From NCBI GenBank assembly GCA_002839375.1, contig PGXY01000006.1, positions 62,001 through 126,000 of the forward strand: a DNA stretch of 64,000 nucleotides, read 5' to 3'. Below, piece by piece: positions 16,767 through 27,071 of this stretch (positions are counted from its first letter, which is position 1; every line of letters begins with the position of its first letter). The notes beneath the pieces were generated by a model, which searched no databases, was not told where the DNA came from, and was given only the letters and a program-made list of their open reading frames with translations. Source of the stretch: Spirochaetae bacterium HGW-Spirochaetae-1. GTDB taxonomy: Bacteria > Spirochaetota > UBA4802 > UBA5550. The translations under genes and the position numbers were made by a program.

Positions 16767-18377
16767 ATGCGAGATAAAAAATTGAAGGATCTTTCGAAGG
16801 AAGAACTAATTCATATTATTGAGAATCTTCAGCAGAAGTATGACATTGAGACAAAGGAACTTTTACCTCTTCAGATTGATTACCGGGCCCTGCTTGAGGC
16901 CACTTCGGATATCATCTTTGTAATTGATAAAAACGGTGAATTCGTTTTTGTCAATTCCGCCTGGAAATATTTCTATCCCTCCATGGGCGAGGGACCTATC
17001 ACGGGACATTATACCGACAACATACCCGATATCGAAAAAACTCGGGCCGCCATTGTATTCAATGATGTAATTTTCAAGGGTAAAACCATTGAGAATGAAC
17101 TGATGAAAAGCTTTGATGAGAAAGGCGAACCTATATATTTTATAGCCAGTTTCTCACCACTGAAAAACAGCGATGACGAAATAATGGGCCTTCTGGGGAT
17201 AATGAAGCACAACACGGAACGCCACCTGATAAAGAAAAAACTGAAAGCCAATACGAGAATCCTTGAAGAAAAAATTAAGGAACTGGTAGCGCAGCAGGAA
17301 GAACTGAAGTCGCTTCGCGACCTCAGCGAGGATATCATATTCAACGCCCCCATGGGAATTTTTCTCATGGATCCTTCGGGGATCATGCTCAGTGAAAATC
17401 CGGCTCTGAAAAAAATAATGGGTCACGGCAATGATTCAAGGATCGGTGTCAATCTTCTTGAGTATACCGGTTTTATCCAGAGCGGGCTGGATAAAGTTTT
17501 TGAACAGTGTCTCCGTGAAAAGAAAACGATTAAAAAAGACGATGCGCATTATATCCCCATTGCCGGTGACCGCGAGGTAATTATCGATGTCATCATGGAC
17601 CCTCTTTTCGATGAGAAGGGAAATGTAAAACGGGTCATCATAATGGTGGAGGATAAAACCGAACAATTTCGGGTTGAGAAAAGGGCAAAGCGCGCGGAAA
17701 AAATTTCATCCATTGGCAAGCTCTCTCAGGGTATTGCTCTTGAGCTCAGGGCCCCCATCGATAAAATGTACATGGACCATAATTTCATCATGAATAATAT
17801 GGAGCAGACGAGCCCGGCTTACGAATATGGAATATCCATAAAGGACCAGCTTCACCGTATTCGCAATCTCTCGGAGCAGCTTCTGGCGCTATCGGGCCCT
17901 GAAGAGGGAGAGAAAGAAGTCTGTGAAATAAACAAGGTACTCCTCAATCACCCCATTGATGTGCTCATAAGCAGGCTGAAGGAAAAGGGATTCACCGTGA
18001 ATCTGAACCTGCCTGAAATAAGCCCCACGGTAAAAGCAACCAGCGGGCAACTCAAGCAGGTTCTTTTTGATCTAATTGAAAATGCCGAAGAGGCCATGCC
18101 TGATAAGGGGACGATTACTGTTTCCGTTAAGGCGGAACCGACCAGGGAAGGCGAATTCGTAGTGATAACACTGGCGGACTCCGGTGTGGGCATACCTACG
18201 GATAAAATGCAGAAGATATTTGAACCATTCTTTACAACTAAGGGTGAAAATGCCACGGGGCTGGGGCTTATGATCGCTTCTAATGTCATTGAAAACCTGG
18301 GCGGGTGCATCGCGATTAAAAGCGCCCCTGGCCAGGGTACTACTTTTAAAATTGCGATCCCCATGTTGAAGACGTGA
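16767..18377 (+). CDS. PAS-PAS histidine-kinase-like protein lacking the H-box His
   Basis: A 536-residue soluble protein. It has an N-terminal coiled segment, a PAS domain (about 32-155), a coiled coil, a second PAS (about 190-300), a dimerisation helix pair and a GHKL ATPase (DLIENAEEAM, LADSGVGIP, EPFFTTKG, GLGLMIASNVIENLGG). In the H-box the usual GIAHE reads GIALE, so the phospho-acceptor His is Leu. ATP binding looks intact. It is the first gene of an operon with a MoxR ATPase (18 bp gap) and a VWA protein, so it may regulate those through a non-canonical route. Confidence 0.88.
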   Translation: MRDKKLKDLSKEELIHIIENLQQKYDIETKELLPLQIDYRALLEATSDIIFVIDKNGEFVFVNSAWKYFYPSMGEGPITGHYTDNIPDIEKTRAAIVFNDVIFKGKTIENELMKSFDEKGEPIYFIASFSPLKNSDDEIMGLLGIMKHNTERHLIKKKLKANTRILEEKIKELVAQQEELKSLRDLSEDIIFNAPMGIFLMDPSGIMLSENPALKKIMGHGNDSRIGVNLLEYTGFIQSGLDKVFEQCLREKKTIKKDDAHYIPIAGDREVIIDVIMDPLFDEKGNVKRVIIMVEDKTEQFRVEKRAKRAEKISSIGKLSQGIALELRAPIDKMYMDHNFIMNNMEQTSPAYEYGISIKDQLHRIRNLSEQLLALSGPEEGEKEVCEINKVLLNHPIDVLISRLKEKGFTVNLNLPEISPTVKATSGQLKQVLFDLIENAEEAMPDKGTITVSVKAEPTREGEFVVITLADSGVGIPTDKMQKIFEPFFTTKGENATGLGLMIASNVIENLGGCIAIKSAPGQGTTFKIAIPMLKT

Positions 18378-18395
18378 CGGGTAAGGTAGCGGAGT

Positions 18396-19898
18396 ATGTA
18401 TAAAAAAATAAAGAGCATAGAAGAATTATTCGCCGAAGACGGGTATACGGTTTTTTCCCATGACGATGAAGCGGTTGAGGATAAAGGCAGGGAAGGGCTT
18501 GGTGATGCTGAAAAAGAACTCATTGATCACCTTAAATACCTGGTTGACAATCAAAACCTGAGCGGCCATGTCATAACGGAAAGAACGGAGAAGATTCCCG
18601 ATAAGGAAACTGATATGACGACCTTCAAGCAGAAGGTCGAGGACCGTTATGATATTCCCACCATCGTTGAATTTCTCAACTGGCACATGAACAGGATCTC
18701 CGAAAATGTCATCGACCGTGATGAAATAGTCCGCCAGGCCTTCTTCGCCATTCTGACCGGCGAGCATATGCTGCTTCTGAGCCGTACCGGTATGGCCAAA
18801 TCATTCCTGACCAATTATATATTCCATACTTTTCAGGGAGCCAGGATTTTTTCCTCCCAGGCAAGCAAGGATCAGACACCGGACAATTATTTCGGTCCCT
18901 ATAACATAGATGAATTTAAAAAGGGGAGGATTCGTCATAATGTGCGAGGCTCCATAATCGAAGCCAACCTGGTTTTTCTCGATGAATTTTTTGATGCCAG
19001 CGACGTGGTTTTGCGCTCCCTTCTCTCCGTGCTCAACGAAAGAAAATTTATCAATGGTCAGGAACAGATCGACGCGGCCGTTCATACCGCCATAGCTACG
19101 GCAAACTACATGAGAATGAACGAGGTTACCGAAGCGGTACTGGACCGCTTCACCTATAAGTCCATCATTCCAGAGAACCATCATGTGTATTCACAGCTGC
19201 TCATCGACCATACCTACGCCTTTACCATGGGTGAGCCGGTCTACACCGAAAAGAAAATCTATTTTGACCAGATCCTCTATCTCCATAATATCATAAAAAA
19301 TAAAAATAAAGAGATAAAGGTAGAGATACCTGACTTTACCTATTTTATGAAAAATGTCATAGTCAATAAATTCGTCAGCGAAATGAGAAAGAGCGATTAT
19401 AACTTTTTCATCAGCCCCCGCAAGCAGGCCAAGCTGGGCGATTTTCTCCGTGCCTATGCCCTTATCAACAACCGCCTGGAAGTAACCCTGGATGATATAA
19501 AAGATATGCACCTGGCCCTCTGCACGCTGAACAGTTATGTTTCCGTGAAAGCCAAAGACAAGTCGGAAAAGGACGTGTTCCTTGACGCGTATCAGCAGAC
19601 CATGACGCATTTTAAGGTCACCGGTGCCATACAACAGATCGAGTTTCTTCTGAATGTGCGTAAAATATTTCAGGAACTCCGCGAGAACCCCGACAAACGC
19701 GACCAGATACTGGAGAGAAAAAATTTCATCGAAGGGATCCTCAGCCTGCTGAAAAAAATATTGCCCGGCAGGAACCGCGGTGATGAACCTCTTACTATAG
19801 AAAATCTCAGAAGAAATGTTGTTGAATTGAACCCGGCCGTTGAAGAGGTGAGCGAGCTGAAAGAGGGGATTCTCAAGGATTATCGTGATATCCATTAA
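18396..19898 (+). CDS. MoxR/RavA-type AAA ATPase
   Basis: A 500-residue protein. A variable N-terminal 90 residues precede the AAA core with Walker A (SRTGMAKS), Walker B (LVFLDEFF), sensor-1 (AIATANY) and an Arg region (AVLDRF). This is the MoxR family, whose members work as chaperone-like ATPases with VWA partners. The VWA gene follows after 8 bp. A C-terminal helical region with no recognised motif makes it longer than minimal MoxR proteins and RavA-like. Confidence 0.9.
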   Translation: MYKKIKSIEELFAEDGYTVFSHDDEAVEDKGREGLGDAEKELIDHLKYLVDNQNLSGHVITERTEKIPDKETDMTTFKQKVEDRYDIPTIVEFLNWHMNRISENVIDRDEIVRQAFFAILTGEHMLLLSRTGMAKSFLTNYIFHTFQGARIFSSQASKDQTPDNYFGPYNIDEFKKGRIRHNVRGSIIEANLVFLDEFFDASDVVLRSLLSVLNERKFINGQEQIDAAVHTAIATANYMRMNEVTEAVLDRFTYKSIIPENHHVYSQLLIDHTYAFTMGEPVYTEKKIYFDQILYLHNIIKNKNKEIKVEIPDFTYFMKNVIVNKFVSEMRKSDYNFFISPRKQAKLGDFLRAYALINNRLEVTLDDIKDMHLALCTLNSYVSVKAKDKSEKDVFLDAYQQTMTHFKVTGAIQQIEFLLNVRKIFQELRENPDKRDQILERKNFIEGILSLLKKILPGRNRGDEPLTIENLRRNVVELNPAVEEVSELKEGILKDYRDIH

Positions 19899-19906
19899 GG
19901 TAAGGG

Positions 19907-21565
19907 GTGACACCATTGCAAGCCCTTGATTTCAGCTTCGGTGCCGGGAAGGAAATAGATTTTTTTGATTATGGTGATTCCATAGGTTTTTTTGACAACC
20001 TGCAGCTTATTCTGCCCTCCAAGTTTTATATCCTCTTCGAAATAGCCAGGACGATTTTTACCGGCGAAACGACATCCGAGGCTTTGTGCGCCATCGATGA
20101 AATTACAAAAGAAGAGAAAATATACGAGCCCGACAGGGCAGAAACCATCCAGATAAACCGTGTGGACAGAACGTCGCCCCTGAGCGACAGGATGGAAATC
20201 GAGATGTACCGCACCATCAACGATCTCAAGAAGGCGCTGCCGCGTGAACTGGCCCAGGATGATGATATATTCTCAGCGAAGCTTTTCACCAAGACCCTCA
20301 TGGTACAGAAATTCTATGAATCCGAGGCCGACAGCTACAAGCCTATTTCGACAACCATGGACGAGCGCGGTAAAGAGGCAAATAAATTCGAACAGAAGTT
20401 TTATATCCTCATGGACCGCTCCCGTTCCATGGATCTCAAGTTCAGGTCTTATTATTCGAAGTGCATCGTGGCGGAATTTTTCCGGAGAAAGCTCAACAGC
20501 AAGGCCAAGCTGTACTACCGGGCCTTTGATTCAAAAATCGGGGAACTGTGTAAAATTGAAAAGCGCGAGGATTTCCCCAGCATGATCGAGAATGTCCTCA
20601 TGACGGATACGGGGGGCAGCAGTACCAATCTTCAGGAGGCCGTTTTCCAGGCCATCAAAGATATCGAATACGACAAGGAAATGCTCAATGCCGAAATCCT
20701 GGTGATAACCGACGGTGTCAGCAAGATCAATAAGCATGAAATGCGTAAGCGCCTGGGCTCCATACGGCTCAATGTCATGAAAATAGGTGATGAGCTGGCC
20801 GAGGCCGACTATTATGAACTGAAGCGAAACCTGGATCACGATAATGTCGATTTCGATCCCACATCGGTCAATCTGAAAAACATCAAGAAAAAAATGGATG
20901 AGCGTGATCCCGGGAATCCCGGCGATGAGCTGCCCCTTGCAGTGCAGCGCGCCTATCGCCTGGTGCTGGATCATTCGGAGAATGTTTTCAAGGATTTGCG
21001 GGAGATATCCCATAAGTACATCGAAATCGCCGATCTGAAGCATGATGGACTGTTCATCCCCTCCGACGAACATGTTCAGAACATTAAAGATACCGTGGAA
21101 CGTTTTTTGTCCTTTGACTTTATGAAACTGAGTATCGAACAGCGGCAGAAGGCCTATAAAAAGGTATACTTTTTCTGCCAGTACCTGCAACAGCTGATCC
21201 AGGCCGATGAGAAGCACAGGGACACCCTTCAGTGGAGCCTGGAAAAGCTTAATGAGATCAAACAGCGTATGCTCAAGGACATGGAGCTCCTTTTTACCAT
21301 ACGGAAGGTGAAGGAGCTTGATGACGATAAAAAACTGATGAAGCTGGCGAAGAAAGAGGCCAGGAAGCTTATGAAGCAGATGCAGCTTGAAAACAGAAAG
21401 CTTTCCATCAGGGAAATGAAAAAGGCCCAGGTGCTCCTCACTATGGATGTGGGCGAGGGGAGCATGGGACAGTTTATCCTGCTGCTCCTGGTTAAATTAT
21501 ACATGTTTATTAAAGAGTCCGCACAGTACCTTTTCAAAGGTTCGGCGCGGAAGAAAGAAAAATAA
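19907..21565 (+). CDS. VWA-domain protein, partner of the MoxR ATPase
   Basis: A 552-residue protein with a central VWA domain. The MIDAS motif is complete: DRSRS (about 168-172), the Thr in GGSSTN, and ITDG. A helical, charged C-terminus (about 330-530) contains long coiled segments. It has ViaA-like architecture and should act with the upstream ATPase in metal-dependent substrate binding or complex maturation. The GTG at 19907 overlaps the ribosome-site region; TTG 19916 is an alternative start. Confidence 0.88.
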   Translation: MTPLQALDFSFGAGKEIDFFDYGDSIGFFDNLQLILPSKFYILFEIARTIFTGETTSEALCAIDEITKEEKIYEPDRAETIQINRVDRTSPLSDRMEIEMYRTINDLKKALPRELAQDDDIFSAKLFTKTLMVQKFYESEADSYKPISTTMDERGKEANKFEQKFYILMDRSRSMDLKFRSYYSKCIVAEFFRRKLNSKAKLYYRAFDSKIGELCKIEKREDFPSMIENVLMTDTGGSSTNLQEAVFQAIKDIEYDKEMLNAEILVITDGVSKINKHEMRKRLGSIRLNVMKIGDELAEADYYELKRNLDHDNVDFDPTSVNLKNIKKKMDERDPGNPGDELPLAVQRAYRLVLDHSENVFKDLREISHKYIEIADLKHDGLFIPSDEHVQNIKDTVERFLSFDFMKLSIEQRQKAYKKVYFFCQYLQQLIQADEKHRDTLQWSLEKLNEIKQRMLKDMELLFTIRKVKELDDDKKLMKLAKKEARKLMKQMQLENRKLSIREMKKAQVLLTMDVGEGSMGQFILLLLVKLYMFIKESAQYLFKGSARKKEK

Positions 21566-21582
21566 ACCGGCCCCGTTGATAC

Positions 21583-22551
21583 CTACAGTTTTTCTTTAAG
21601 ATACCACTCAACCGTTTCCGTCAGTATCTCCATGTTGTCCTTTTTCGGCTGCCATCCCAGGTCCGTTTTGATGTTCTGGCAGTCCAGGATGAGGCTGTTA
21701 AGAAGATAAAAGAGGTGCTCCCTGGTGAAGTAATTGGTTTTGACGAGTTTCAGAAACAGGAAAAGGAAAATAGCTTTACCGGGTGTTATGAAGCTCAGGG
21801 GCGGGTCGATCCTGAGCCGGTCTCTGAGTCTGACAATCTGGTCCATCTGGGTCGGAACATTGTCGGAACCTATATTGTATGCCTTGCCGGTCGTGGACTT
21901 CGCTGTATAGGCGGCCATGATGGCGTCGGCCGCGTCATCGGGATGGAGGAGCTGGAACTTGGTGTTTCCGTTGTGGGCAACATACATTCTATTGGCCTCG
22001 TCCATACCCAGAGCCATGAAGAGCGACATGAGAACGACCGGGTCCTTGACCTGGGGGCCGATGATAAGGGCAGGCCGGAAAATGGTTATGGGCATGCTTT
22101 TCTTGGTTATCAGAGTCCAGCACTGGTTTTCAATTTTAAGCTTGTCTTTTCCATATGGCGTGACCGGTTTTTTCCGGTCATCCTGGCGGACCGGCATGGC
22201 TTTCGGTTTGCCGTACACTGCATAAGAGGAGAGGAAATAAAATCTTTTTATCGAAGCCTTTTGGGCGGCAAAAAGCAGGTTCTCTGAACCCTTTATATTG
22301 ATTTTTTTCATGTATTTTCTGCCCTTTTTGCCGGGCCTTTTTATATCCATGAGATGAATAATCGTTTCAACGCCATCACATGCCTTTTTCAACTGTCGGG
22401 GATCAAGAAGGTCGCCATTGATAAATTCCAGGTTTTCAGGGAAGTCTTTTGTTTTATAAAAATCGTAGCAGCGGACTTTCTCTCCCTTTTCCACTAGTTT
22501 TTTAAGCAGGGTTCTGCCGAGCAGGGTATTGCAGCCTGTTAAAAGTATCAT
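21583..22551 (-). CDS. NAD-dependent epimerase/dehydratase family protein
   Basis: A 322-residue extended SDR. The nucleotide-binding start is LLTGCNTLLG, a variant of TGxxGxxG. The catalytic Ser region (LSSYAVYG) and Y-x3-K (YGKDK) are present. It converges with the VWA gene. The substrate (nucleotide sugar, or a hopanoid- or steroid-like compound) cannot be told. Confidence 0.82.
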   Translation of the reverse strand: MILLTGCNTLLGRTLLKKLVEKGEKVRCYDFYKTKDFPENLEFINGDLLDPRQLKKACDGVETIIHLMDIKRPGKKGRKYMKKINIKGSENLLFAAQKASIKRFYFLSSYAVYGKPKAMPVRQDDRKKPVTPYGKDKLKIENQCWTLITKKSMPITIFRPALIIGPQVKDPVVLMSLFMALGMDEANRMYVAHNGNTKFQLLHPDDAADAIMAAYTAKSTTGKAYNIGSDNVPTQMDQIVRLRDRLRIDPPLSFITPGKAIFLFLFLKLVKTNYFTREHLFYLLNSLILDCQNIKTDLGWQPKKDNMEILTETVEWYLKEKL

Positions 22552-22696
22552 TCACGGCCTCCACATGATGGTGTCAAATTGAGATAAAACACTTGTTCCA
22601 AGATATATGAAAAGAACATGAAGAAAATAGTCAAGCATATTTGCATAAAAGAAAACATCCTGGCCGGTATGAACATTAAAAAAATAATGTCAATGT

Positions 22697-23623
22697 CTAG
22701 GGGCGATTATTTTTTAAAAAAGTGGTGATGAACAGGCGTTTCAGTTTCGGTGAAAAAAGGACGCCTTCGATCCTGCTCTCTGCCGCGGAACCTGCAATAG
22801 TGGCATAGGGATTTTCCATGAGCCGGTTGTCGCAGGCCATGAAATATTGTCCTTCACCCACAATAAAGGAGTCGCTCTTCACGGGTTGCTTCCGTCTCGT
22901 GGTGTCGATCATCACGGCGTATCGGCGGTTGTCTATTTCTTCCGATACCAGGTACTCGGTATAAGCGGCGTCCAGGCCGGACATTTCATTCTCAGAGAGC
23001 GCGTCCCGTTTCAGTGGATGACCATTTACCAGCAGGTCCTGGCCCCTGATCGTAACGGCATTGCCGTTAAGCGCTATCAGCCGCGCCGGCATTGCACCAT
23101 TTTCACCCTGAAAAAGAAGAACGTCTCCTTTAACAAAGCCGGTTGGATTATATTTTTTTATGATGACGATATCACCGGCAGAGATGAGGGGTGATGTGTT
23201 TTCACTTCGTATTTGGCGGAAAGAAATAAATGTGAAGAAAATTGCAAGAGTGATGATGGAAATTCCAAGATTAAGAAGGATATAGGCAATATACCAGGCC
23301 GGCCCGTTGTACTTTTTCCTGATAATTGTTTTTTTATTGATCGACATCATCATGGCTTTAAAAGGTGATATGAGGGAAATCACGAATGAAAAGAGGAGCA
23401 TGAATGTCGTGATATACAGGTATGAGGGCCGGGGATTGATCTGCATATAGGCTGGCAGCACGGCCAGGGGGATAGTGCGGAGAAGGAAAAGAATAAAGCC
23501 CGATGGCCATTTGCCGCAATACATCTCTCCGGCACCGGTGAACGCGAGAGAGAGGAAGAATGCCGCAGAGGGATTCCTTTCGATTGTTTTCTGAGAGCGT
23601 ATAATTTTTTTATGCATGGTCAC
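22697..23623 (-). CDS. Signal-peptidase-I-like membrane protein, catalytic residues lost
   Basis: About 308 residues. Four hydrophobic helices (about 20-135) are followed by an S26-like domain with the box-E relic ACDNRLMENP. Aligned with E. coli LepB, the nucleophile Ser90 of SxxPTLxxGD falls on Asn142 (NTSPLISAGD), and the Lys145 position in the IKRAVGLPGD box falls on Ala180 (PARLIALNGN). Peptidase activity is therefore unlikely. The start may be GTG 23623, overlapping the MBL stop by four bases, or ATG 23617. It is probably cotranscribed with the MBL hydrolase. Confidence 0.7.
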   Translation of the reverse strand: MTMHKKIIRSQKTIERNPSAAFFLSLAFTGAGEMYCGKWPSGFILFLLRTIPLAVLPAYMQINPRPSYLYITTFMLLFSFVISLISPFKAMMMSINKKTIIRKKYNGPAWYIAYILLNLGISIITLAIFFTFISFRQIRSENTSPLISAGDIVIIKKYNPTGFVKGDVLLFQGENGAMPARLIALNGNAVTIRGQDLLVNGHPLKRDALSENEMSGLDAAYTEYLVSEEIDNRRYAVMIDTTRRKQPVKSDSFIVGEGQYFMACDNRLMENPYATIAGSAAESRIEGVLFSPKLKRLFITTFLKNNRP

Positions 23624-24279
23624 AGATATGATTCGATAAAATTTCGTACTTCTTCTCTTCCGAAGAAGACACCGAAATGTCCTTCGCAGAGAATATCCGC
23701 CTCAAGAGAAAGCAGGAATTCCAGGGACCTGATATAATCCTTTCTGCTCGATCTGAGGACATCGTTGAGAGGGCCATGAACATCCTGGCCGAAGAGGACA
23801 AGCTGGTCGTCGGATCGCACGGTTAATACCGATGATCCCGGTGAATGTCCCGGCGTATGATAAAAGTTCAGAGTAAGCCCGTCAAGGACAAACTGTTTTT
23901 CGCCTTCCGTGACCTTAATATCAACGGCAACGGGTTTCATGAAGGAGCCGTACCATGAGGCCGCCGTTGTTTCGGAATCGCCGTCTTCAAGGAACGCGGC
24001 GTCCAGTGCATGGGCCACGATGACAGAGCCCGTTGCCTTCTGCAGTTCCAGCGCACCGCCCGTATGATCATAATGGCAGTGGGTCAGAAAGAGATACCTG
24101 ATGGAGTCAGGACCGGTTCCCGTTGACCTGATATTGTCCACAACCCTGCGTGCGCCGCCGCCCGTTCCGGCGTCGATGAGGGCCGCGACGGGGCCATCCT
24201 TTATGAGATATATGGCTGCATCAGCCGAATAGGACTGTGTGGAACCTCCCACCTGGAACACCTGTGATGTGATCTTCAT
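23620..24279 (-). CDS. Metallo-beta-lactamase-fold hydrolase
   Basis: About 220 residues. The metal motif THCHYDHTGG (HxHxDH) is complete, as are downstream ligand histidines in HTPGHSPG and EGH. This is the MBL-fold, glyoxalase-II-like superfamily; the substrate is unknown. The ATG at 24279 (MKITSQVFQVGG) fits the family start better than the upstream extension to 24315. It is divergent from the GDPD gene. Confidence 0.88.
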   Translation of the reverse strand: MKITSQVFQVGGSTQSYSADAAIYLIKDGPVAALIDAGTGGGARRVVDNIRSTGTGPDSIRYLFLTHCHYDHTGGALELQKATGSVIVAHALDAAFLEDGDSETTAASWYGSFMKPVAVDIKVTEGEKQFVLDGLTLNFYHTPGHSPGSSVLTVRSDDQLVLFGQDVHGPLNDVLRSSRKDYIRSLEFLLSLEADILCEGHFGVFFGREEVRNFIESYL

Positions 24280-24321
24280 TCTGTAAAAATGTGCAAATGA
24301 GCGGCAAATTGTCAAATAATA

Positions 24322-24350
24322 TTGATTGACTTTATGCGGAAAGTTATAAT
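24322..24350 (+). promoter_or_regulatory. Sigma-70-type promoter for the GDPD gene
   Basis: TTGATT (24322-24327), a 17-base spacer and a perfect TATAAT (24345-24350) lie just before the GDPD start. Confidence 0.65.
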
Positions 24351-24362
24351 TTATTGAAGAAT

Positions 24363-25079
24363 ATGGGAAAATTATTGAAAATAGCCCACCGGGGGTACAG
24401 CGCCCGGTATCCGGAGAACACGATCATTGCCTTTGAGCAGGCCATTGCAGCGGGTGCTGATATGATCGAATTCGATGTTCACCTCTCGAAAGACGGTGTG
24501 CCTGTCGTAATTCACGATGATTTGATCGATCGGACTTCCGATGGTGTCGGTTTTGTGAAGGATTATACACTGCATGAACTGCGCGAATACGATTTCTCCT
24601 ATCTGTTCAAACATCACGGCCCTGTTGGAATACCCACGCTGGAGGAGGTAATCGACTGCGCCGGTGAACGGGTGATGCTTAATATTGAAATCAAGAACTG
24701 TCCCATGCAGTACGAGGGAATAGAAAGCGAGATACTGAAAGTTCTGCGTGGGAAGGATTGCATAAGCCGGGTTGTCATATCTTCCTTCGATCATTTTTCC
24801 CTGGACAGGATCAAGTCAGCCGAAGGCGGCATCAGGACCGGTGTCCTGTACAGTTCACTGTGGCTCTCTTTCGAATCGGAGATTAAACTTCTCCGTCCCT
24901 ACTCCATACATCCCGAAATAGCGGTCTGCCACAGGGAGCAGCTGAAATGGGCCCGGGATAAAGGGCTTGCGGTTTTTCCCTGGGTGGCCCATGACAGGTC
25001 TGCGGCGCTGGAACTATTTCTTTCCGGGCTTGTGGACGGTGTAATGGTAAACGAGTTGGATATTTTAAGTGATCTGTGA
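24363..25079 (+). CDS. ugpQ: Glycerophosphodiester phosphodiesterase
   Basis: A 238-residue GDPD with the active-site HRG (AHRGYS), metal ligands E-x-D (EFDVHLSKDG) and HDD (VIHDDLIDRT), and the closing WVAHD region. It cleaves glycerophosphodiesters to glycerol-3-phosphate and an alcohol. It lacks a signal peptide, so it is cytoplasmic. ATG 24363 is preferred over TTG 24354. The TPR gene starts 9 bp later and may share the transcript. Confidence 0.9.
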   Translation: MGKLLKIAHRGYSARYPENTIIAFEQAIAAGADMIEFDVHLSKDGVPVVIHDDLIDRTSDGVGFVKDYTLHELREYDFSYLFKHHGPVGIPTLEEVIDCAGERVMLNIEIKNCPMQYEGIESEILKVLRGKDCISRVVISSFDHFSLDRIKSAEGGIRTGVLYSSLWLSFESEIKLLRPYSIHPEIAVCHREQLKWARDKGLAVFPWVAHDRSAALELFLSGLVDGVMVNELDILSDL

Positions 25080-25088
25080 GATAAATGT

Positions 25089-27071
25089 ATGGATGTCATG
25101 AAAAAAGCTATAAAGTGCCTGCTTCCCATGGCGATTCTTCTGTTTGCCGTCGATTTCCAGGCCCTGGGTAAAAATGCCGTTTCCTACAATAAGGATGGAT
25201 GGGAATATCTCAGGCAGAGTGAAAACCGGAGGGCAATCTTCAGTTTTAAAAACGCCCTGAAGCTGAATCCCCATTATGAAATGGCACTGCTGGGACTTGC
25301 CGATGCCTATTTCGAAGTGGGTGTCTATGACGAGGCTCTGACCCTTTATGAAAAGGTGCAGAAGCTGAATATCAAATCCGAGAAGGCGCTGACGGGGATA
25401 GCCTTTATATTCATTGAACAGGGAAAATTCACCAGGGCCATGGAATATTTCGAGAAAGCCCTGGAAATATCACAGGAAAACATGGAGGCGCATTATGGCA
25501 TAGCCTACCTGTATTACTCCATGAACAGGATCGTCTGGGCTAAAAGAAAGATAGACGGCATCTTGAAGATGGCTCCCTACCATTACAAGACCCTGCTTCT
25601 CATGGCCGACATAAAAAGTGAGGAGAAACGTCTGAATGAGGCGAAACAGTATGTACAGAAGGCCATCGATGCCCAGAGCGAAGCGACCCCGGCTTTCATA
25701 AAAATGGGCCAGATATATTTTCAGGATTATCTCAATACGGGGAACAAAGATTCGCTGACCGAGGCTGTGTACTACCTGCAGAACGCCCTGTCTATTCATC
25801 CCGGAAGCTATCAGGCAAACCGGGAAATGGGCCTTGTTTCCTATTATGAAAAGAACTATGCGGCGGCCATCGAGCATTTTAAAAGGGCGCTGGAAATTAA
25901 TGCAACACCGTCTCTTCTGTACAGCCTGGCCGACTGCTATGACAGGGCCGGAGACCAGGAGACTTCCCTGGATTATTTTCTTAAGGCCTACAAGGCAGCG
26001 CCCACAGACCCGTTCCTCAAAAGCAGGTTCGAGCAGTTTCTTGTTATGCATGATTACGCCATGGGCCATCCGGCCAGGAACATGTTCAATAATGATAACT
26101 ATTATTTGGCCCAGAAAGCAATAAAGATGAATATGCCCGATGAGGTGATCATGTACCTGAGAAGGACCCTTCTTCTCAATCCCATGAACAGGGACGCCCG
26201 TGAAGCGTTGATTAAATACTACGCCGGCATGGACTATGACCGGTTCGTTATTGATGAGCTCAAGGAATTGCAGAGGATAAATCCCGACAACAGCGTGAGG
26301 GAACGACTCAGCACGGCAATACTGAAAAGACGTAACCGTCTCTATCACCAGGAGGGCTACTCGGCGGAAATGCCGCCCCGCGATGTCCCGCGCGTCCTGG
26401 TCATGGATTTTATCTCCGGGGGATCGGTATCATTGCATCCCGATGCCGGCGAGGTTATAGCCGTTGATATGTCTTTTATTCTTCAGCAGTTCGGCCGCCT
26501 GGATCCTGTTTCCATGAGAAAAAGGGCCTCAGTGCACGGCCTGCGAAGCGACGAGGATCATTTCTCCGACAGCCTGGACAGAATGGATGCCATGATAAAG
26601 GAAGGGACACTGGAGCCCTTTGATTTTATACTCTACGGTGAATACCTGGAAAAGGGAGACCGCCTTATCCTTACCGTTAATGTCATGGATTACCGCAAGG
26701 GAATCATTATCGACACCTTCACCGTGTCCGACGGAAGCAGGGAAAGCCTGCAGCGTGTATGTCTCAGGGCCGCCCGCCATGTTTATGGCGTGATACCCTT
26801 CAAGGGAAGAATACTGAAGCTCAAGGATGAGGGGATTGTCGTCAACCTGGGCAGCTTTGACGGGATGAAACCCGGGGACAAACTGGTCATATATAAATAC
26901 GCTGATTTTTCCAACAAAAACAGGATCAAAGACAAGCTCATATTCACCATTGATCAGGCCGATATGGACGTGTCCTATGCTGTACCGCAGAAAAAAGACG
27001 TGCTCCTCGATATTGATCCCAGCGACGTGGTGTATCCCCTGGAAAGGCGCCGTGCGCGGCGCATCGAATAA
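25089..27071 (+). CDS. Exported TPR protein with FlgT-like C-terminus
   Basis: A 660-residue protein with a signal peptide (to about residue 28) and at least eight TPR units (about 33-345), e.g. AMEYFEKALEISQENMEAHYGIAYLYY. The central part (about 430-560) resembles CsgG/FlgT-like nucleotide-free folds (VLVMDFISGG…, LYGEYLEKGDRLILTVNVMD). The end (about 570-650) reads FKGRILKLKDEGIVVNLGSFDGMKPGDKLVIY, as in FlgT C-terminal domains. It is likely periplasmic, possibly linked to envelope or flagellar assembly. No flagellar gene is adjacent. Confidence 0.8.
   Translation: MDVMKKAIKCLLPMAILLFAVDFQALGKNAVSYNKDGWEYLRQSENRRAIFSFKNALKLNPHYEMALLGLADAYFEVGVYDEALTLYEKVQKLNIKSEKALTGIAFIFIEQGKFTRAMEYFEKALEISQENMEAHYGIAYLYYSMNRIVWAKRKIDGILKMAPYHYKTLLLMADIKSEEKRLNEAKQYVQKAIDAQSEATPAFIKMGQIYFQDYLNTGNKDSLTEAVYYLQNALSIHPGSYQANREMGLVSYYEKNYAAAIEHFKRALEINATPSLLYSLADCYDRAGDQETSLDYFLKAYKAAPTDPFLKSRFEQFLVMHDYAMGHPARNMFNNDNYYLAQKAIKMNMPDEVIMYLRRTLLLNPMNRDAREALIKYYAGMDYDRFVIDELKELQRINPDNSVRERLSTAILKRRNRLYHQEGYSAEMPPRDVPRVLVMDFISGGSVSLHPDAGEVIAVDMSFILQQFGRLDPVSMRKRASVHGLRSDEDHFSDSLDRMDAMIKEGTLEPFDFILYGEYLEKGDRLILTVNVMDYRKGIIIDTFTVSDGSRESLQRVCLRAARHVYGVIPFKGRILKLKDEGIVVNLGSFDGMKPGDKLVIYKYADFSNKNRIKDKLIFTIDQADMDVSYAVPQKKDVLLDIDPSDVVYPLERRRARRIE

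What the first reader, a model, noticed from the sequence alone, without database searches (positions are those of the whole stretch)
22697..23623. Signal-peptidase-I pseudoenzyme with an enlarged membrane domain
Seen: in the two S26 boxes the nucleophile Ser maps to Asn142 and the general-base Lys to Ala180, while the fold-bearing CDNR box persists. Four N-terminal helices are more than usual LepB. Inference: a repurposed binding protein, perhaps for precursor proteins or lipoproteins, linked to a metallo-beta-lactamase-fold gene by a 4-bp overlap.
Basis: partly seen in the sequence, partly recalled or inferred. Interest (0 to 1): 0.5.

Follow-up and report, generated by a model that had tools for sequence, protein, structure and literature searches.

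The report
Dead signal peptidase with membrane anchor
This gene encodes a membrane protein built on the fold of signal peptidase, the enzyme that trims exported proteins, but with its cutting machinery gone; the same dead version is kept in many related uncultured spirochaete genomes, so it probably does a non-cutting job that is still unknown.

Summary
Window 22697-23623 (-) encodes a 308-aa S26/LepB-fold protein in which the nucleophile Ser is Asn142 and the base Lys is Ala180. The equivalents of E. coli Gly272 and Ser278 are lost too. It is not a one-off: orthologues occur in 35 of 46 genomes of its order (uncultured Spirochaetes). In 31 aligned members Lys is never present and none has both Ser and Lys. 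The fold-bearing Arg181, Asp265, Arg267 and Tyr235 are invariant in the 29-row alignment. The predicted structure (pLDDT 92.5) matches E. coli signal peptidase (Z 17.9). Close pairs are under purifying selection (dN/dS 0.13-0.32). Intact LepB enzymes are elsewhere in the genome. The metallo-beta-lactamase gene sits just upstream in 27 of 34 assessable genomes, but each gene occurs without the other, and the old peptide cleft is less conserved than the rest of the domain. The most conserved part is a DUF5683/TM2-like membrane motif. Best reading: a non-enzymatic membrane scaffold or assembly factor, comparable to Streptococcus SipA, in a new lineage with a new membrane domain. A second, shorter S26 paralogue is also losing its catalytic dyad in this order. 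Function remains inferred.

The parts
22697..23623 (-). S26-fold pseudo-signal-peptidase, 308 aa (GTG start; the ATG at 23617 is the start conserved among relatives)
   Evidence: model
23474..23578 (-). residues 16-50: DUF5683/TM2-like membrane motif, the most conserved part of the family (mean pairwise identity 0.446)
   Evidence: weak Pfam DUF5683 matches below cut-off
23198..23200 (-). [quoted passage not shown]
23084..23086 (-). [quoted passage not shown] next to invariant Arg181 (23081-23083)
22823..22834 (-). CDNR box (residues 264-267): Asp and Arg invariant, Gly272-equivalent replaced, three-residue deletion follows where Ser278 would lie
   Evidence: role of Gly272 and Ser278 from PMC4049620 section 8
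23620..24315 (-). metallo-beta-lactamase-fold hydrolase, adjacent upstream (likely start ATG at 24279); zinc motif HxHxDH intact by reading the translation (motif recalled)
21583..22551 (-). NAD-dependent epimerase/dehydratase family gene, downstream in the same direction

Best explanation
An order-wide family of membrane-anchored, catalytically dead signal-peptidase-like proteins. Shown by sequence and prediction: S26 fold kept; Ser, Lys, the Gly272-equivalent and the Ser278 loop lost; intact LepB elsewhere in the genome; gene kept under purifying selection. Inferred: the N-terminus and the 96-108 loop face the cytoplasm and the S26 domain faces the periplasm. Inferred, most likely mechanism: the protein does not cut. 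It is held in the inner membrane by its conserved DUF5683/TM2-like hairpin, through which it contacts a shared membrane partner, and offers its dead S26 domain at the membrane surface as a docking or chaperone platform for exported polypeptides that differ between lineages, in the way proposed for SipA in pilus assembly. The client is unknown.
For: Lys absent in 31 of 31 and Ser absent in 26 of 31 members; none has both. Gly272-equivalent never Gly and the three-residue deletion present in 31 of 31. Arg181, Tyr235, Asp265, Arg267 invariant in 29 of 29. LepB main family intact in 29 of 29. Tree: the long family is set apart from all other S26 by a branch with SH-aLRT 99, length 0.90. AlphaFold2 mean pLDDT 92.5; Z 17.9 to E. 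coli LepB 1t7d over 160 residues, Z 13.7 to SipA 4n31. dN/dS 0.13-0.32 in the 5 of 25 pairs that could be computed. Charge pattern: N-terminus mean +2.9, loop 96-108 mean +2.8. Conservation peaks in residues 16-50. SipA precedent read in PMC4049620.
Against: No partner, client or phenotype is known. The cleft is less conserved than the rest of the domain (0.185 against 0.271, p 0.04), unlike SipA, whose cleft is reported as almost entirely conserved; this weakens any claim of one common peptide ligand. SipA itself showed no peptide binding in the assays reported. Two divergent relatives (L101 and L134, one genus) do carry Ser and Lys at the two columns, though with Ala or Pro at the Gly272 position, the same deletion and no shared synteny in the contig available. 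Five genomes of one genus lack the protein, so it is not indispensable in the order.
Confidence: 0.6

Rival explanations
1. A protease with another catalytic site: the S26 fold still cuts, using residues other than the Ser/Lys dyad.
For: The fold and several box residues are conserved. Three of the 31 aligned members still read SMxP at the Ser box (L020, L024, L032).
Against: No Ser, Lys, His or Cys column of the S26 domain reaches 75% in the family; the invariant Ser25 is in the membrane motif. Residues at the former dyad vary freely.
Confidence: 0.05
2. A decaying, nearly neutral remnant of an S26 paralogue.
For: Fast divergence: the relatives in the 29-row alignment are 23-31% identical to the window protein, against 38-66% for LepB main and 54-68% for the neighbouring metallo-beta-lactamase. 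Absent from five genomes of one genus.
Against: Open over full length across six family codes; the two interrupted copies (G016, G042) contain assembly Ns. dN/dS 0.13-0.32. Invariant fold residues.
Confidence: 0.1
3. A dedicated partner of the adjacent metallo-beta-lactamase-fold hydrolase, forming one two-gene function.
For: Adjacent on the same strand within 300 bp in 27 of 34 assessable genomes, overlapping or nearly so in the window. Co-presence association p 0.013, not corrected for kinship.
Against: 5 genomes have only the S26 protein, 5 only the hydrolase; in G005 and G028 both exist but unlinked. The hydrolase starts MKITSQVF with no evident signal peptide (read by eye), so it would lie in the cytoplasm while the S26 domain is inferred to lie outside.
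Confidence: 0.2
4. A regulator or decoy that binds signal peptides and tunes the active LepB.
For: S26 fold kept; active LepB present in the same genomes.
Against: Cleft columns are the less conserved part of the domain; no direct evidence.
Confidence: 0.1

Closest known systems
Streptococcus pyogenes SipA (pseudo-signal-peptidase of pilus assembly; PMC4049620, PDB 4n31)
   Same: SPase-I fold, both dyad residues replaced, Gly272 and Ser278 equivalents lost, membrane-anchored, non-enzymatic role
   Different: No pilin or sortase family among the seven proteins of this locus scanned; extra DUF5683/TM2-like membrane domain; cleft not conserved; Spirochaete origin
Staphylococcus aureus SpsA (inactive SPase I paralogue; passages of PMC12445088)
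   Same: Paralogue of an active SPase I that lacks both catalytic residues
   Different: Different phylum; no direct sequence comparison made here
Bacterial type I signal peptidase LepB (TIGR02227, PF10502)
   Same: Fold, box residues Arg146/DNR equivalents, inferred topology
   Different: Catalytic residues gone; enlarged N-terminal membrane part
DUF5683 (PF18935) plus S26 fusions such as L135 (G047)
   Same: DUF5683-like membrane segment before an S26 domain
   Different: L135 keeps Ser and Lys (shown as L102) and scores 51.5 bits for DUF5683; the present family scores below the cut-off

Membership tests
Active type I signal peptidase (S26A) | S26 catalytic-domain fold | tested here: met
   Z 17.9 to 1t7d over 160 residues, rmsd 2.8; Pfam E 1.6e-14
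Active type I signal peptidase (S26A) | nucleophile Ser | tested here: not met
   Asn142; Ser in 5 of 31 members
Active type I signal peptidase (S26A) | general-base Lys | tested here: not met
   Ala180; Lys in 0 of 31 members
Active type I signal peptidase (S26A) | Gly272 and Ser278 equivalents | tested here: not met
   Gly absent and three-residue deletion in 31 of 31; roles
Active type I signal peptidase (S26A) | peptidase activity | not testable with these tools
   needs biochemistry
SipA-type pilus factor | dyad replaced in a kept S26 fold | tested here: met
SipA-type pilus factor | encoded with pilins and a sortase | tested here: not met
   none among the seven proteins at 18396-27071 scanned with Pfam
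SipA-type pilus factor | conserved peptide cleft | tested here: not met
   cleft columns 0.185 against 0.271 for the rest of the domain; columns chosen by alignment to the boxes, not by a bound-ligand structure
DUF5683 / TM2 domain | score above the Pfam cut-off | tested here: not met
   DUF5683 13-16 bits against 26.7 in five of the six N-terminal fragments scanned, none in the sixth

The most novel reading that the evidence does not exclude
These spirochaetes may have a multi-subunit signal-processing complex: intact LepB as the catalytic subunit with one or two dead S26 paralogues (this long membrane form and the short form) as non-catalytic subunits, a bacterial counterpart in principle to the accessory subunits of the eukaryotic signal peptidase complex.
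Probability: 0.07. Interest if true: 0.75.

Novelty: new variant of a known kind. Interest (0 to 1): 0.4.

Why it matters
NCBI's automatic rule would call this protein signal peptidase I, since it passes the curated TIGR02227 cut-off (54.7 against 47), yet it cannot work by the known mechanism. The dead signal peptidases that I found in print are from Gram-positive bacteria (searches; passages). An order-wide family in Spirochaetes with a conserved gene neighbourhood would show that the S26 fold has been turned to a non-cutting use more widely. Repeated loss in a second paralogue of the same genomes suggests a lineage-wide change in how S26 paralogues are used.

Tried and rejected
Other catalytic site: looked for conserved Ser, Lys, His or Cys in the 29-row alignment; none in the S26 domain reached 75%. 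Operon signals: promoter-like and terminator-like counts are within shuffled expectation, so they say nothing. Known fold for the N-terminal 134 residues: model pLDDT 92.6, no PDB match with E below 3; absence of a match is not evidence of a new fold, and this part was not put through VIA-align. Bacteroidota-labelled relative L039 (Ser kept, Lys replaced by Phe): not followed further after one search failed. Literature: searches showed no report of this family in the held open-access library; subscription papers are not held. Whether the f3 sequences L101/L134 are orthologues is unsettled (long branch 2.18). Motif roles of Arg146 and the DNR box beyond searches are recalled. The TM2 resemblance was first recalled, then only weakly supported (one of 29 members, E 0.016).

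Rows left out before counts: G002 (only a contig-edge fragment; counted as present in the 35 of 46, not in alignments); G016 and G042 (interrupted by Ns) left out of residue counts; L033 (truncated) left out of residue counts. Before the tree, five pieces (one unrelated, four fragments of G016 and G042) were dropped, then L033 and 12 near-duplicate or redundant rows, leaving 85 of 103. Short-paralogue counts use the 23 loci that I fetched, not all in the order. The dN/dS calculation failed for 20 of 25 pairs (math errors, probably saturation). In one search, five of 30 rows were left out as redundant or truncated.

Full report
What is there. The ORF at 22697-23623 (-) encodes 308 aa with an N-terminal membrane part and a C-terminal S26 domain (Pfam PF10502 E 1.6e-14; TIGR02227 54.7 bits against a cut-off of 47). 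The genome (G000, 5.2 Mb in 14 contigs) holds four S26 places. Two have both catalytic residues: L001 and L002. The third, L003, is a short form with Ala at the Ser position and Lys kept. The fourth is the window protein.

The residue claim. Against intact paralogues the nucleophile Ser falls on Asn142 and the base Lys on Ala180, next to Arg181; the DNR Asp and Arg are kept. An independent profile alignment to S. aureus SpsB puts the boxes in the same register. In E. [quoted passage not shown] So four catalysis-linked positions are gone together.

It is a family. A search of 59 genomes, the own one included, found matches in 36. With a profile of 29 members, the order (46 genomes held) gave, by my reading, 35 genomes with a member: one (G002) only as a contig-edge fragment, two (G016, G042) interrupted by assembly Ns. 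The other 11 are G013, G021, G025, G026, G029, G030, G034, G037, G038, G039 and G041; of these, G026 and G038 carry a divergent relative (L101, L134). In 198 genomes of the phylum no further close full-length member was listed; G047 of another family has a full-length match with intact Ser and Lys. Named records for four loci say 'Spirochaetes bacterium', one of them RBG_13_51_14; a fifth, L039, is labelled Bacteroidota. Pfam S26 was matched by 28 of 29 members at E 0.1 or better.

Residues across the family. Of 31 aligned members, the Lys column is G12 A10 L4 V2 W1 R1 S1, never Lys; the Ser column is Ser in 5, of which three still read SMxP; no member has both. Gly272 is never Gly and the deletion is present in all 31. 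Invariant in the 29-row alignment: Ser25, Gly30, Gly32, Arg181, Tyr235, Asp265, Arg267. The LepB main family keeps Ser and Lys in 29 of 29. In the 85-row tree the long family stands apart from all other S26 on a branch of SH-aLRT 99 and length 0.90 (quick method; many inner forks are open, and L101/L134 fall inside the family on a long branch). L101 and L134 carry Ser and Lys at the two columns, but with Ala or Pro for Gly272 and the same deletion, and none of the neighbouring genes in the contig available. I read these as chance or remnant residues, without proof.

Structure and topology. AlphaFold2 gave mean pLDDT 92.5, pTM 0.86. VIA-align gives Z 17.9, rmsd 2.8 over 160 residues to E. coli LepB 1t7d, and Z 13.7, rmsd 3.7 over 130 to SipA 4n31; Foldseek ranks the same proteins among its first four. 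Helices 39-62, 69-96 and 108-132 are long; 18-27 and 31-35 are short, with the GxG between and in them. Mean net charge over 30 rows is +2.9 for residues 1-17 and +2.8 for 96-108. With both inside, the S26 domain lies outside, as in LepB; this is an inference. The N-terminal motif resembles DUF5683, matched by 7 of 29 members, best E 0.0014; of six N-terminal fragments that I scanned alone, five matched it below the cut-off and one had no match. The N-terminal model alone (pLDDT 92.6) has no PDB match with E below 3.

Selection. YN00 could be computed for 5 of 25 close pairs: dN/dS about 0.25, 0.32, 0.25, 0.21 and 0.13. Divergence is nevertheless fast: 23-31% identity to the window protein among the 28 aligned relatives, against 38-66% for LepB main (28 rows), 54-68% for the metallo-beta-lactamase (34 other genomes) and 40-57% for the epimerase (35 other genomes).

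Where conservation lies. Over 25 less-redundant rows, mean pairwise identity is 0.446 for residues 16-50, 0.263 for the S26 domain, 0.185 for 16 columns taken as cleft-lining and 0.271 for the rest of the domain (p 0.04). The former active site is thus not a conserved pocket. SipA, by contrast, keeps its cleft almost entirely (PMC4049620, first part of the Discussion read). This argues against one shared peptide ligand and puts the conserved interface in the membrane part.

Neighbourhood. The metallo-beta-lactamase gene lies within 300 bp upstream on the same strand in 27 of 34 genomes where this could be judged. An epimerase lies within 500 bp downstream in about 20 of 33 loci (one of these, L064, by overlapping ORF calls), and kinase-MoxR-VWA genes often follow on the other strand. 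Presence table over 46 genomes: both S26 protein and hydrolase 30, S26 protein only 5, hydrolase only 5, neither 6 (Fisher p 0.013); with the epimerase 30, 5, 6, 5 (p 0.043); neither test corrects for kinship. The adjacency is old, but the genes are separable.

How it works. Shown: dead site, kept fold (by prediction), kept gene. Inferred: non-enzymatic, S26 domain outside, membrane hairpin as the conserved contact, variable clients at the S26 domain. The closest worked example is SipA, which is essential for pilus polymerisation without catalysis and for which peptide binding was proposed but not detected (passages of a later structural comparison, PMC12984324, agree that it lacks the dyad). 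SpsA of S. aureus is another inactive paralogue (two passages of PMC12445088). What it works like and what it belongs to differ: by homology it is in the S26 superfamily, but it fails the defining catalytic tests of signal peptidase I, and it fails the gene-context and cleft tests of SipA.

A second dead line. Of 23 short S26 paralogues (about 170-200 aa) that I sampled in the order, 14 lack an intact dyad (Lys lost in 12, Ser in 8), with about 6-7 changes on a tree built without the dyad columns (only 5 of 24 inner branches strongly supported). So S26 paralogues appear to lose catalysis repeatedly here, while LepB main does not.

Verdict. It is a new variant of a known kind (pseudo-signal-peptidases). 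The function is open.

Noticed in passing
L003:1498-2022 (G000:C9) and short S26 paralogues in L144-L148, L153-L169: A short S26 paralogue also loses its catalytic dyad: 14 of 23 sampled lack Ser+Lys, in several lineages; in the window's genome Ser is Ala while Lys is kept.
   Followed up: partly
L039:4030-4953: A contig labelled Bacteroidota encodes an S26 protein with a similar N-terminal motif whose Lys is replaced by Phe while Ser appears kept; possibly another pseudoenzyme line.
   Followed up: no
L101 (G026) and L134 (G038): Divergent relatives of one genus carry Ser and Lys at the dyad columns but lack the Gly272 equivalent and the Ser278 loop.
   Followed up: partly
window 16767-21565 and 24354-27071: A histidine kinase-MoxR-VWA block and a GDPD-TPR pair flank the locus and recur around it in many related genomes.
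   Followed up: partly
L135:5903-7051 (G047): S26 protein with intact Ser and Lys (as L102) and a DUF5683 match above the cut-off (51.5 bits), showing that this kind of membrane fusion is not peculiar to dead enzymes.
   Followed up: no
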